Source: CBDUXP01 sp965371225 [NCBI: uncultured bacterium] (GTDB taxonomy: Bacteria; Abyssobacteria; SURF-5; CBDUXP01). Taken from it: DNA of 64,000 bases. The position numbers and the translations under genes are program-made. Location of the stretch: assembly GCA_965371225.1 (NCBI GenBank), contig CBDUXP010000001.1:1-64000 (forward strand), written 5' to 3'. Below, in pieces: positions 2,835-48,248 of this stretch. Within the stretch, counting starts at the first letter, position 1. Every line of letters begins with the position of its first letter. The notes beneath the pieces were generated by a model that made no database searches, was not told the origin of the DNA, and was given only the letters and a program-made list of their open reading frames with translations.

Positions 2835-4913
2835 CTAGGCGGGGACGGGCGCGGCCGGCGGCGCGGCGGCCAACCGGCGGGCCAGCACCAGCAATATGAA
2901 GACGAGGGTGTAGCACAGCGCGACCCCGATCCCGAGGGCGGTGTAGCCCACGGCCATGCTCGCGTATTCGGCCACGCCGCCCAGGGTGGCCCCTAACAGA
3001 TTCCAGCCGAACAGATGCTCGGGCACTTCCTGGTCGCGGAACGTGATGCTGAAAATGAGGTTCGCGAAGAAGATGGGGCTGAACGTGAGCAAGCTGGCGA
3101 GTACGAATCGCAGCACCGGTTGCTCGAAGTACAACAGGTTGGCGAGCGGATAGACCAGGCCGATCGCACAGGAGCCGATCAGCAACAGGAAGATGGGCAG
3201 CAACACGGCCCGGCCGCGGAGCAGCAACGCGGTCCAGTTGGCGGCGAGCACCAGCACCAGCACGGCGAGAAACACGAGCGAGCTGTTCACCCACGTGGTC
3301 CCGAATAGCAAACTGAACTGAATCACGCTTTTGGTCTCGAGCAGGAGGAACGCCACCCCCATGAGCACGAACGCCAACTTCAGGCTCAGCCCCGCCCCGC
3401 CCGCCAGCGCCGCCGGCATGCCGCGGCGGGCTCGGTGGAGGGTGGCGGCCAGCAGCGCCACCAAGACGGTAAGCACCGCCATCGCTCCCACGTACAGGCG
3501 TGGGATGCCGCGCTGCGAGAGATACAGGAAGGGCCAATCGTCCTTCGGCAGGTCGATGGAAGTGATCGCGTCCCCCGGCGGCGGCGGGAGGTAGGTTTCC
3601 CGCGTGGCCTTGAGCATGGTCAGGCCTTCCCCTTCGAAGATCATCCGCGGGGTGGCGCCGGTGGCCGCGAGGATCATCGCGGAAATCTTCTGCGGCAGCC
3701 ACGGCTGGCGATAGTAGTTGTAGTACAACAGGTCCCCGCCGTCATTGAGCAGGCTGAAGGCGCGTTCCGCCGCTTCGGTCGTGAACAGGTAGTTCTCCAG
3801 CCGCAGTTGCGCCATGGGGCTGACTTTGATGAGCGAGTCGGTCAGCGCGAACACGATCATGTCGTACTTCTCTGAAGATCGGGTGAGCACCACGCGCGCG
3901 TCGGTCACGGTCACGTGCACGCGGGGGTCGTCGTACGGCCGGAGCGGATGGTAGCGCCGGCCGAGTTCGTAAATCACCGGATCAATCTCCACCGCGTGGA
4001 CGTACTCGGCGCCGTTCAGCAACGCCGCGGCCACGTCGTTGCCCGAGCCCGCCCCGATAATCATGACCCGCTTGTATGGGGCCCGGCCCACGTTCGCCCG
4101 GTCGTCGAAGGGCTCCTGGTAGAACGTTTTCACGAGGGAAATCTGGGGGGACATGGTCTGGTGCGCGATCCCATTCACGAAGATGTGATGCGGATATTGC
4201 AGCGAATGGACGTACTCGATTTTCTGGTACGGGGACCAGTGCGACTCCACGTCGCCGCGGAAGTCGGGGTTCACCAGCAGCATGGTGTCGCGGTGCCGCG
4301 CGAGGAGGATGACGGGGAGCAGTAACACCGCCGCGACGGCGCGCTGCCGCCACGCCCCCGGCGGAAGCGCCAGGCCGTAGAGGGGAATGAGCGCGGCGAA
4401 CCACAGGAAGGCCGGTAGTTGCACCCAGCTGGCCGCCATGAACGCCAGAATCCCACAGCACGACCCGGCGATATCGAGCGTGTACGCGTGCAGCGGCGCG
4501 TATCGGCGGAACTGTTTGGCGGTGCGCTGCGATAGCAGGACAAAGATCAGGACCGTCAAGGCGAACCACACCGCGAACATGAGCGAGCTGTTGCCCCCCG
4601 CGGCGGGGCCGAGCGCGAAGAACAGCTCATCCCCCACCCGTCCGCTGTTGTCCCCGAAGCCGGGGACCACGGGATTCGCGAACGTCACGAAGGCTACCAG
4701 GACCAACAGCAGCACCAGCGCACCCTGAAATAACCGGTCGGAGGTGCGCTCCGACCAGTAGTGGTGAAACATGAAGCCGCTGCCCATCCCGACGAAGACC
4801 GCGATGAGCACGAGGTTCGGAAAGTAGCCGAGGTTCCAGATGTTGCCCGCGAGATAGCGGATCAGCACCAGCTCCTGAAACAGGGTGAGAAACCCAAGGA
4901 CGAACAACTGCAT
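2835..4913 (-). CDS. Multi-TM membrane protein with spermidine-synthase-like methyltransferase domain
   Basis: 692 residues in three parts: about six N-terminal membrane segments (1-225), a central soluble Rossmann domain (about 230-470), and a C-terminal block of hydrophobic segments (about 480-690). The Rossmann domain has a SAM/dcSAM-type motif, MIIGAGSGNDVAAALL, followed by the acidic motif HAVEIDPVIYELGRRY. This matches polytopic proteins with a spermidine-synthase-like core. The classical catalytic residues of SpeE are not obvious, so polyamine synthesis should not be assumed. The start fits the end of the hydrophobic N-terminus, and a TATACT -10 box lies 38 bp upstream on this strand (4952-4957). 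Confidence 0.78.
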   Translation of the reverse strand: MQLFVLGFLTLFQELVLIRYLAGNIWNLGYFPNLVLIAVFVGMGSGFMFHHYWSERTSDRLFQGALVLLLVLVAFVTFANPVVPGFGDNSGRVGDELFFALGPAAGGNSSLMFAVWFALTVLIFVLLSQRTAKQFRRYAPLHAYTLDIAGSCCGILAFMAASWVQLPAFLWFAALIPLYGLALPPGAWRQRAVAAVLLLPVILLARHRDTMLLVNPDFRGDVESHWSPYQKIEYVHSLQYPHHIFVNGIAHQTMSPQISLVKTFYQEPFDDRANVGRAPYKRVMIIGAGSGNDVAAALLNGAEYVHAVEIDPVIYELGRRYHPLRPYDDPRVHVTVTDARVVLTRSSEKYDMIVFALTDSLIKVSPMAQLRLENYLFTTEAAERAFSLLNDGGDLLYYNYYRQPWLPQKISAMILAATGATPRMIFEGEGLTMLKATRETYLPPPPGDAITSIDLPKDDWPFLYLSQRGIPRLYVGAMAVLTVLVALLAATLHRARRGMPAALAGGAGLSLKLAFVLMGVAFLLLETKSVIQFSLLFGTTWVNSSLVFLAVLVLVLAANWTALLLRGRAVLLPIFLLLIGSCAIGLVYPLANLLYFEQPVLRFVLASLLTFSPIFFANLIFSITFRDQEVPEHLFGWNLLGATLGGVAEYASMAVGYTALGIGVALCYTLVFILLVLARRLAAAPPAAPVPA

Positions 4914-8561: not shown

Positions 8562-8643
8562 TACAGCCTCGCTTTCCCTTTGCGCGCGGCCACCGACGGC
8601 GTGCGCAGGTGCATTGTGCAGGTTCCGGGCCCCGCTCCCCTCA

Positions 8644-8697
8644 CGTAAGCCCGGCCACACTTTACAACATCGTAGGCCCGGGCACACTTTACAACAT
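8644..8697. repeat. Two tandem 27-bp repeats
   Basis: Copies at 8644-8670 and 8671-8697 match at 25 of 27 positions and abut with no spacer. Each contains CACACTTTACAACAT next to a CCCGG-rich core. They lie in the 240-bp divergent region between mddA and the gene at 8802, so could bind a regulator of either gene. Confidence 0.85.
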
Positions 8698-8801: not shown

Positions 8802-9266
8802 ATGCAATCACGAGGTTACGCCGTCTTGTGCGGCGGCCTGGGCACGCTCATGGTCCTGCTGGGGATCCTCTTGTTTCTCACCTTCTTTGGGTACCACAGC
8901 CCCGACGGCAGCAGTCCGATCGGCACCGGCCCGACGGGGCATTACTTCGTCGCGTTCAGCGGGTGCGCCACGCTCGCGTGGGGCGGCTGCCTGATAGCAG
9001 GCGCGCGCAACACGGAACTCGGCCGCGCGCTGGCCGTGCCCACCGTGATCGGCCTCGTCATGTCGGCCGTCTATCGCATGGTCGTCTGGATCGTCGGCGA
9101 CTATTACATTCAACTCGGCAACCTGCCGCGCACCGAAGCCGCGATCTTTCTCGTGCTCGCGCTCGCGTTCGTGTGGCTCCGGCCCAGGAAGGCCGGCGTC
9201 GGCGAGACGAAAAAGGTCGCCATCCCCCGACCGAGCACCGACGCGGTACTTGAGGAGGCCAACTAA
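8802..9266 (+). CDS. Four-TM membrane protein, function unknown
   Basis: 154 residues with four predicted membrane helices (about 7-30, 49-66, 76-98, 108-125) and a short charged C-terminal tail. I do not recognise the family. A TAGAAT -10 box lies at 8748-8753. The stop codon TAA shares one base with the ATG of the selenoprotein gene, and the Shine-Dalgarno of that gene (GAGGAGG) lies inside this one. The two genes are therefore translationally coupled, and this protein may be a membrane partner or electron donor of the redox selenoprotein. Confidence 0.75.
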   Translation: MQSRGYAVLCGGLGTLMVLLGILLFLTFFGYHSPDGSSPIGTGPTGHYFVAFSGCATLAWGGCLIAGARNTELGRALAVPTVIGLVMSAVYRMVVWIVGDYYIQLGNLPRTEAAIFLVLALAFVWLRPRKAGVGETKKVAIPRPSTDAVLEEAN

Positions 9267-9865
9267 TGGGACGCTGGATCGCCACGATACTGATCGGTCT
9301 GCTGTTGGCGCTGGATGTTGCGTTGCCGAACACCCCCATCGGCCGCCGGGGCAGTGAGGCCCAACCCAGACTCGACGCGCCGGAAGCATTCGCCGCCGTG
9401 GGCCAGCCGATGCCCGACTTCGCGATGCGCGACCTGGACGGCAACCCCGTGCGCCTCCGAGACTACAGGGGGAAACGTCTCATCCTCACGCTCGAACGCA
9501 GCCTGGACTGGTGACCCTACACCAAGATGCGGCTCGGTGAGCTGCACCACACGCTGAGCGACCTGGACGACGTCACCATCCTGTACGTGCTGCCCGACGT
9601 GCAGGTGAATGACAAGACGCGACGGTTCGTCGACGAGTCCGGCATGCGCACGAACGTGCGCGTGCTCGTGGACGAGAACAGCGCGTACATCGACCAACTC
9701 GGCCTGCGCCGGCCGGACCCGGAACCGATGGAAGCGGGGGTGCCCCATCCCAGCACGTACGTCATCGACCGCGCCGGGAACGTCCGCTTGGCCGACGTGC
9801 GCGCGGACTACCACATCTGGATCGACTCGAACACGCTGAAGCAGGAACTGGCCAAGCTGGAATAG
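9266..9865 (+). CDS. Thioredoxin-like (AhpC/TSA, TlpA-type) selenoprotein with in-frame UGA
   Basis: One continuous frame of 200 codons is interrupted only by TGA at 9512-9514 (codon 83). Before it: an N-terminal membrane anchor or signal sequence (residues 1-20) and the fold start PMPDFAMRDLDGNPVRLRDY. After it: PYTKMRLGEL and a normal thioredoxin C-terminal half with DENSAY and cis-Pro region PHPSTYVIDRAGNVR. The TGA falls where homologues carry the active-site Cys (DW-C-P-Y), giving DW-U-P-Y-T: selenocysteine, with Thr replacing the second Cys. A SECIS-like hairpin follows at 9528-9546. The second half has no ribosome binding site of its own. Reading it as two ORFs or a pseudogene would be the usual automatic annotation. 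Confidence 0.85.
9528..9546 (+). promoter_or_regulatory. Candidate bacterial SECIS element
   Basis: Starting 13 nt after the UGA, an 8-bp stem (U plus GCGGCUC pairing with GAGCUGC plus A, one G-U pair) closes a GGU loop at 9536-9538, 22-24 nt from the UGA. Bacterial SECIS elements sit just downstream of the UGA and carry guanines with a GU in the apical loop for SelB binding. Position, stem length and loop all agree. Confidence 0.75.
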
Positions 9866-47675: not shown

Positions 47676-48248
47676 ATGCGCCTGACCCCCATCGAGAACC
47701 CGCCGGGCTTGATGCCCAAGCTCGCGTACTGGATGACCAAGCGGAAGCTGGGCAAAGTCATCATGCCGATGAAGGTTGTGAACGCGCGCATGCCGAAAAG
47801 CTTCAAGCACGCGTGGGAGTCAGTCAAGGTCGCGTAGAATTATCTCACCCTGGATAAAGAACTCAGCTTTCTCATCAAGAGCTATGTGTCCATGCTCAAC
47901 AAGTGCCTCTTCTGCGAGGACATTGCGAAAGCGGTCGCGGTGGAATACGGGCTCACGCTCGACAAGTACCACGCGCTCGGGGCGTTCCGCAGCAGCCCCT
48001 TGTACTCTGCCGCCGAACGGGCGGCGCTCGCGTACGTGGAGGAAGCGACGCAGCAGAAGCACGTGTCCGACGAAACGTTCGCGGCGCTCAAGGAACACTT
48101 CAGCGACACGCATATCGTCGAGATCACCTGGCTGAACGCGCTGGAGAACTACTACAACCTCATCAACCTCCCGCTGGAGATCGAGGCCGACGGCCTGTGC
48201 GTGTTGGCGCTGGACCGCGCCGGCCGGCCGCAGGACGCGGTGGCCTGA
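47676..48248 (+). pseudogene. AhpD/carboxymuconolactone-decarboxylase-like gene interrupted by an in-frame amber codon
   Basis: From ATG 47676, with AAGGAGG eight bases upstream, the frame runs 191 codons but contains TAG at 47835-47837 (codon 54). Before it is the usual N-terminal part (MRLTPIENPPGLMPKLAY); after it the core with the redox pair CLFC (Cys77, Cys80) continues without frame change, followed by ALGAFRSSPLYSAAERAALA and a normal end. No ribosome binding site precedes an internal restart. The simplest reading is a recent nonsense mutation or base-call error; readthrough cannot be excluded. If made, the product would be a small alkylhydroperoxidase-like protein. Confidence 0.72.

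What the first reader, a model, noticed from the sequence alone, without database searches (positions are those of the whole stretch)
9266..9865. Selenoprotein hidden as two ORFs: thioredoxin-like protein with UGA in the active site
A single frame of 200 codons contains one stop, TGA at codon 83, exactly where this family has its active-site Cys (DW-C-P-Y). The reading frame, composition and fold continue unchanged after it. A hairpin with a GGU loop lies 13 nt downstream, as in bacterial SECIS elements. The second half has no ribosome binding site. The result is a U-x-x-T active site, with Thr replacing the second Cys, so a mono-selenol redox enzyme. Automatic annotation would call two fragments.
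Basis: partly seen in the sequence, partly recalled or inferred. Interest (0 to 1): 0.88.

Follow-up and report, generated by a model that had tools for sequence, protein, structure and literature searches.

The report
Selenoprotein redoxin with one lone selenocysteine
A gene that software would split at a stop codon very probably makes one redox enzyme carrying the rare amino acid selenocysteine, and unlike the relatives found here it has no partner cysteine, so it probably works through the selenium atom alone.

Summary
Window 9266-9865 is one 199-residue AhpC/TSA-redoxin frame broken only by TGA at codon 83 (9512-9514). Of 104 fetched relatives, 73 carry exactly one in-frame stop, always TGA; in 72 it falls on codon 83, in one (L183) on the TxxU site of ordinary Sec-peroxiredoxin. 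Downstream, the window has a hairpin (8 bp, GGU loop, 21 nt from UGA) meeting the four published bacterial SECIS criteria. Relatives share the position, their helix covaries, and a model built without the window finds the site at E 1.7e-6. All 40 tested genomes with a TGA form have selB or tRNA-Sec, against 25 of 40 others. So UGA is very probably Sec, in a family already known: Prx-like, UxxC. New is Thr at +3: all 72 aligned Sec relatives have Cys there, and the window protein has no Cys at all. Mechanism (inferred): an exported mono-selenol peroxidase or reductase recycled by an external thiol, GPx- or 1-Cys-like. Not testable: Sec machinery in the source genome (none held). No second UxxT member was found, and a gene 38 kb away is broken by TAG, so defects in this DNA are possible.

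The parts
9252..9258 (+). Shine-Dalgarno sequence GAGGAGG, 7 nt before ATG 9266
9266..9865 (+). whole selenoprotein gene (199 codons plus TAG), AhpC/TSA-redoxin family
9275..9325 (+). hydrophobic N-terminal stretch, probable signal peptide or membrane anchor (judged by eye; several relatives have signal-peptide-like N-termini)
   Evidence: sequence; relatives; inference
9512..9514 (+). TGA read as selenocysteine (codon 83), aligned with TGA or the nucleophilic Cys of relatives
9521..9523 (+). ACC, Thr86, in place of the second Cys of UxxC/CxxC
9528..9546 (+). bacterial SECIS hairpin: 8-bp stem, GGU apical loop at 9536-9538, 21 nt after UGA
   Evidence: criteria from PMC13188914 Fig. 2 legend
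8802..9266 (+). upstream ORF, by eye a small membrane protein, whose stop overlaps the start of the selenoprotein gene (TAATG); probable translational coupling; no Pfam match above cut-off

Best explanation
9266-9865 is one gene for a selenoprotein of the Prx-like (AhpC/TSA) redoxin family. UGA at codon 83 is decoded as selenocysteine with the help of a SECIS hairpin just downstream (supported by comparison; the recoding itself was not observed). The protein is probably exported, anchored or periplasmic (inferred from its N-terminus). Because Thr replaces the resolving Cys and the protein has no other Cys, the selenol probably acts alone: it attacks a peroxide or disulfide, becomes selenenic acid or a mixed selenosulfide, and is reduced by an outside thiol, as in glutathione peroxidase or 1-Cys peroxiredoxin (inferred by analogy, recalled; about 0.6 given that it is a selenoprotein). 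The protein translated just before it is a candidate partner (speculative). The confidence below is for the selenoprotein reading.
For: Family match continuous across the TGA. In 297 genomes of the phylum of G007, 85 places matched at E 1e-7 or better: 53 have exactly one stop, always TGA, and 32 have none (counted by me from its list). All 53 TGA places and 21 of the 32 stop-free ones were fetched. In 104 loci, the 103 readable at codon 83 are 72 TGA, 29 Cys and 2 misaligned, with no other stop in the matched stretch; the 104th, L183, has its TGA at a TxxU site. Hairpins of -4 kcal/mol or better with a G-loop: 52 of 52 TGA against 4 of 24 Cys relatives in the first search, 1 of 24 when narrowed afterwards to 13-27 nt, 70 of 72 against 5 of 31 in the wider set. 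Helix on 37 relatives: 94% of cells paired, 24 cells changed on both sides, 0 of 500 shuffles reach either. Model from these 37, without the window, finds 9506-9565 at E 1.7e-6, next best 0.67. Sec machinery: of 40 genomes with a TGA form 37 have selB over cut-off, 36 a tRNA-Sec above 60 bits, 40 at least one; of 40 others, 25 (Fisher p 1.2e-5, kinship ignored). Thr86 and no Cys.
Against: No genome is held for the window, so its own selA/B/C/D are untested; the window has no tRNA-Sec. The best relatives are only 35-37% identical. No other UxxT member: 0 of 72. The window's branch is long (1.46) and its place in the tree unsure. Gene 47676-48248 in the window is broken by TAG, so this DNA does carry a defect or error. 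Structure prediction failed (pLDDT 39). At the published -7.5 kcal/mol line my simple finder passes 53 of 72 TGA and 3 of 31 other relatives; 2 of 72 miss even -4, and 20% of coding positions in the window reach -4 by chance. One covariation measure, further pair types, is no better than shuffles (241 of 500), and part of the model's score is codon similarity.
Confidence: 0.87

Rival explanations
1. A recently broken redoxin: a nonsense mutation at the Cys codon (or an assembly error) in a decaying gene, with loss of the second Cys as part of the decay.
For: A second gene in the window, 47676-48248, is interrupted by TAG. Thr at +3 is unique among the relatives read. No close UxxT relative. 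The hairpin alone is not rare in this DNA.
Against: The stop is TGA and falls on the column where 72 of 103 readable relatives also have TGA (the set was enriched for TGA places). The hairpin sits at the family position, and where the usual Gln codon CAG has become Arg CGG a G-U pair keeps the helix. Frame and codon bias stay intact for 116 codons after it. TGC or TGT to ACC needs at least two base changes, so Thr is not a single read error.
Confidence: 0.08
2. It is a selenoprotein, but not a lone-selenol enzyme: it exchanges thiols and disulfides like its UxxC relatives, with a Cys supplied in trans, for example by the protein encoded just upstream.
For: All 72 aligned Sec relatives are UxxC, the thioredoxin-like motif; the upstream ORF overlaps the gene and has three Cys.
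Against: No family for the upstream ORF and no convincing homologue of it in the loci then held (best E 0.03, not beside a redoxin match; only four of these loci had wide flanks). The protein itself has no second Cys.
Confidence: 0.3
3. TGA is reassigned (for example to Trp or Gly) in this organism rather than decoded as Sec at one place.
For: The in-frame TGA is read through by homology.
Against: 15 of 61 picked ORFs end in TGA, and this is the only internal TGA in the window with strong coding signal on both sides.
Confidence: 0.01

Closest known systems
Prx-like thiol:disulfide oxidoreductase selenoproteins (PF00578, UxxC/UxxU; PMC13188914 Table 1; Prx-like protein, UXXC, in PMC1088965; passages seen)
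   Same: PF00578 domain, Sec at the N-terminal position of the CxxC-type site; in the UxxC relatives read here, a SECIS hairpin mostly at the same place
   Different: Thr instead of Cys/Sec at +3 and no other Cys
Peroxiredoxin-like family selenoprotein (cd02970, UxxS; PMC13188914 Table 1, passage seen)
   Same: AhpC/TSA-type redoxin with a hydroxyl residue at +3
   Different: Ser, not Thr; cd02970 membership could not be tested here
Sec peroxiredoxin (TxxU), as in L183
   Same: AhpC/TSA family, Sec decoded from UGA
   Different: Sec lies at the other end of the motif; residue -3 here is Leu
Glutathione peroxidase-like selenoproteins (PF00255, UxxT)
   Same: UxxT motif and, by analogy, single-selenol chemistry
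   Different: PF00255 not matched; different family
CPxS redoxins (L082, L170)
   Same: Single nucleophile with a hydroxyl residue at +3
   Different: Cys form without TGA; L082 is about 26% identical; long branches

Membership tests
Prx-like thiol:disulfide oxidoreductase selenoprotein | AhpC/TSA domain (PF00578) | tested here: met
   E 7.6e-20, 71.5 bits against cut-off 26
Prx-like thiol:disulfide oxidoreductase selenoprotein | UGA at the first position of the CxxC-type site | tested here: met
   aligned with TGA in 72 and Cys in 29 of 103 readable relatives
Prx-like thiol:disulfide oxidoreductase selenoprotein | Cys or Sec at +3 (UxxC/UxxU) | tested here: not met
   Thr86, codon ACC
Bacterial SECIS element | Apical loop 3-9 nt, upper stem 4-16 bp | tested here: met
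   3-nt loop, 8-bp stem
Bacterial SECIS element | G in the first two loop positions, loop 16-37 nt after UGA | tested here: met
   GGU, 21 nt (criteria)
Bacterial SECIS element | MFE at or below -7.5 kcal/mol | tested here: met
   -11.0 for the hairpin alone
Bacterial SECIS element | Directs Sec insertion with SelB | not testable with these tools
   needs an experiment
Selenoprotein gene | selA, selB, selC, selD in the same genome | not testable with these tools
   no genome held; no tRNA-Sec in the window
Sec peroxiredoxin (TxxU) | TxxU motif | tested here: not met
   L-D-W-U
Glutathione peroxidase-like | PF00255 domain | tested here: not met
   only AhpC-TSA and Redoxin matched
Peroxiredoxin-like UxxS selenoprotein | Ser at +3 (UxxS) | tested here: not met
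   Thr at +3
Peroxiredoxin-like UxxS selenoprotein | cd02970 domain | not testable with these tools
   that model is not in the libraries at hand

The most novel reading that the evidence does not exclude
A subfamily of Prx-like redoxins in which the resolving Cys was dropped after Sec was gained, leaving a protein with selenium as its only redox atom: a GPx-like UxxT active site reached independently in the AhpC/TSA family.
Probability: 0.45. Interest if true: 0.5.

Novelty: new variant of a known kind. Interest (0 to 1): 0.42.

Why it matters
Gene callers would report two fragments and miss a redox enzyme. TGA forms of the family turned up in 45 of 297 genomes of the phylum of G007 (record title: Acidobacteria), so the miss may be common there. 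The UxxT form offers a clean test of whether a lone selenol suffices in a fold that normally pairs a selenol with a thiol. The tree needs 13 changes between Sec and Cys forms, at least 9 on well-supported branches, and one Cys form still keeps a SECIS-like hairpin, so Sec and Cys appear to be swapped readily in this family.

Tried and rejected
Close relatives by peptide patterns: none in genome contigs (25 stretches matched, none confirmed) or viral contigs. Plasmid records: 20 weak matches of 24-31% identity, motifs not examined. A degenerate DNA pattern for DWUP[YF]TK in viral contigs gave two loci that I judge chance, neither matching the protein. The protein at E 1e-12 or better: phylum of G010 0 of 149, G002 0 of 251, G011 0 of 149, G008 1 of 199 (a Cys form), G006 1 of 64 (a TGA form); the phylum of G009 proved to be the same 64 genomes. 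Phylum of G012 at 1e-9: 9 of 68, four of them TGA forms. Class of G311 at 1e-14: 16 of 162. Naming the source organism: an IolD-like neighbour found relatives at up to 62% in many phyla, no clear home. I had no centre from Myxococcota, Desulfobacterota, Binatota, Methylomirabilota or Pseudomonadota; those were covered only by the pattern scan, so closer relatives may sit there. Single-sequence structure prediction was too poor (pLDDT 39), so no fold search was run. The tree joins the window with a CxxS protein, L082 (98/89), but the tool warns of long branches, and BLAST scores UxxC forms higher; not relied on. Pyrrolysine for the TAG at 47835 was set aside because TAG is the commonest stop of picked ORFs (31 of 61).

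Biases and rows dropped: the third batch of regions was mostly TGA places, so 72 of 103 is not a frequency; the unbiased list is that (53 of 85). L183 was left out of the count because codon 83 was not aligned; one search shows its TGA at a TxxU site. The narrower hairpin search was set. A2 holds 37 of 48 distinct TGA stretches; I left out nine with hairpins elsewhere and two near-copies, which favours the covariation count. In some searches, 80 of the 99 genomes first listed were searched. The 60-bit line for tRNA-Sec is mine (listed scores leave a gap between 60.6 and 52.4). Coding scans rest on ORFs picked by base composition, some of which may not be genes.

Full report
What is there. Window 9266-9865 (+) is a single frame of 199 codons and a final TAG, broken by one TGA at 9512-9514, codon 83. 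ATG 9266 follows GAGGAGG by 7 nt; the first in-frame ATG after the stop, 9527, has no such signal. The gene starts inside the stop of an upstream ORF, 8802-9266 (TAATG), by eye a small membrane protein, without a Pfam match above cut-off. Coding bias continues through the TGA and Pfam AhpC-TSA matches across it (E 7.6e-20). With both sides required to score above 0.2 this is the only internal TGA in the window with coding signal on both sides; at a looser line three weak ones join it, along with several TAA and TAG sites, mostly between neighbouring genes in one frame.

Relatives. No genome is held for the window and no close relative turned up by peptide patterns. Whole-genome searches did better. 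In 297 genomes of the phylum of G007 (record title: Acidobacteria), 76 have a match at E 1e-7 or better, at 85 places: 53 with exactly one stop, every one a TGA, in 45 genomes, and 32 with none (counted by me from its list). Weaker hits include other patterns (one with three TGA, one with a TAG). I fetched 104 loci: all 53 TGA places and 21 of the 32 others, the rest. Of 103 readable at codon 83, 72 have TGA, 29 Cys and 2 TCG, where the alignment is off by a few residues from an H-L-C-P-W-S site. None of the 103 has any other stop in the matched stretch. The remaining one, L183, has its TGA at a T-R-G-U site, as in ordinary Sec-peroxiredoxin (TxxU), not at codon 83. Best matches are 35-37% identical (L087, E 3.8e-20; L154).

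SECIS. The window hairpin has an 8-bp stem, a GGU loop, 21 nt between UGA and loop, and -11.0 kcal/mol, meeting the four criteria printed in the legend of Fig. 2 of PMC13188914 (passages seen). Alone it is modest: 245 of 5000 synonymous recodings do as well, and a hairpin of -4 kcal/mol is found at 3814 of 19,119 coding positions of this GC-rich window. But 26 of 52 TGA relatives have a 3-nt-loop hairpin at exactly 21 nt and 14 more a 5-nt loop at 20 nt, the same helix with its top pair open. All 52 TGA relatives reach -4 kcal/mol, against 4 of 24 Cys relatives in the first search and 1 of 24 when the search was narrowed afterwards; in the wider set, 70 of 72 against 5 of 31, and at -7.5 kcal/mol 53 of 72 against 3 of 31. 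On 37 relatives the 7-pair helix is 94% paired with 24 cells changed on both sides, 0 of 500 shuffles as high; the number of further pair types does not exceed the shuffles, and the tool warns that kinship can inflate such scores. A covariance model from these 37, without the window, puts the window site first at E 1.7e-6; part of that score is codon similarity.

Machinery. The source genome cannot be searched. In 40 genomes with a TGA form, 37 have selB over the curated cut-off and 36 a tRNA-Sec match above 60 bits; all 40 have at least one. Of 40 other genomes (25 with a match free of stops, 15 without a match), 25 have at least one (Fisher p 1.2e-5, which ignores kinship). So Sec decoding is common in this phylum with or without the gene.

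What is different. Every one of the 72 aligned Sec relatives has Cys at +3; the window has Thr (ACC), and no Cys anywhere in the protein. Two Cys-form proteins with Ser at +3 (L082, L170) show that a single nucleophile exists elsewhere in the wider family. PMC13188914 Table 1 (passages seen) lists PF00578 Prx-like as UxxC/UxxU and a cd02970 form as UxxS; there UxxT stands for GPX-like, OsmC-like and a Grx-like family among others, and I saw no PF00578 UxxT. PMC1088965 (passages seen) gives Prx-like as 21 UXXC and 1 UXC. The passages seen of PMC9312934 and PMC2398784 show no PF00578 UxxT, a word search of PMC12013277 found no UxxT, and the listings of three searches showed no title of that kind. 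That is an absence in these sources only.

How it probably works. Supported by comparison: frame, aligned UGA, conserved hairpin, missing second Cys. Inferred: Sec insertion, export, chemistry. The most likely chemistry is a lone selenol that reduces a peroxide or disulfide and is recycled by an outside thiol, by analogy with glutathione peroxidase and 1-Cys peroxiredoxins (recalled). A partner Cys in trans, perhaps from the overlapping upstream protein, is the main rival.

Doubts. The lineage is unplaced, the variant is a single sequence, its branch is long, the structure model is useless, and a gene 38 kb away is split by TAG. I put Sec at about 0.9 and the lone-selenol mechanism at about 0.6 given Sec.

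Noticed in passing
window 47676-48248 (+): YciW/AhpD-like gene (NCBIfam NF053654, 'YciW-related (seleno)protein', E 2.1e-25 read across the stop, 89.5 bits, under its cut-off of 310) with Shine-Dalgarno sequence and an in-frame TAG at 47835-47837, in a stretch poorly conserved against the one homologue compared. Probably a nonsense mutation or an assembly error; its own motif is CxxC.
   Followed up: partly
window, whole: Stop codons of picked ORFs are 31 TAG, 15 TAA, 15 TGA of 61 (28, 14, 9 of 51 ORFs of at least 150 aa) in 68% GC DNA. TGA usually dominates at such GC (recalled), so it looks depleted.
   Followed up: no
L118 (from G313), 401-964: A Cys form (DWCPYC) that still carries the family's SECIS-like hairpin 21 nt after the Cys codon: apparently a recent change from Sec to Cys.
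   Followed up: partly
L183 (from G254): A TxxU-type Sec-peroxiredoxin with in-frame TGA (T-R-G-U), found as a weak match.
   Followed up: partly
G255 contig C152 (L099): A Cys-form redoxin match at 8835-9227 lies about 180 bases from a tRNA-Sec match at 8563-8657. In G093 and G141 a TlpA-like match lies about 5.5 kb from selB.
   Followed up: no
L082, L170: Cys-form redoxins with CPxS in the phylum of G012 (title: Hydrogenedentota), a possible single-nucleophile branch.
   Followed up: no
window 8802-9266 (+): Unassigned ORF, by eye a small membrane protein, with three Cys, overlapping the selenoprotein gene by one base.
   Followed up: partly
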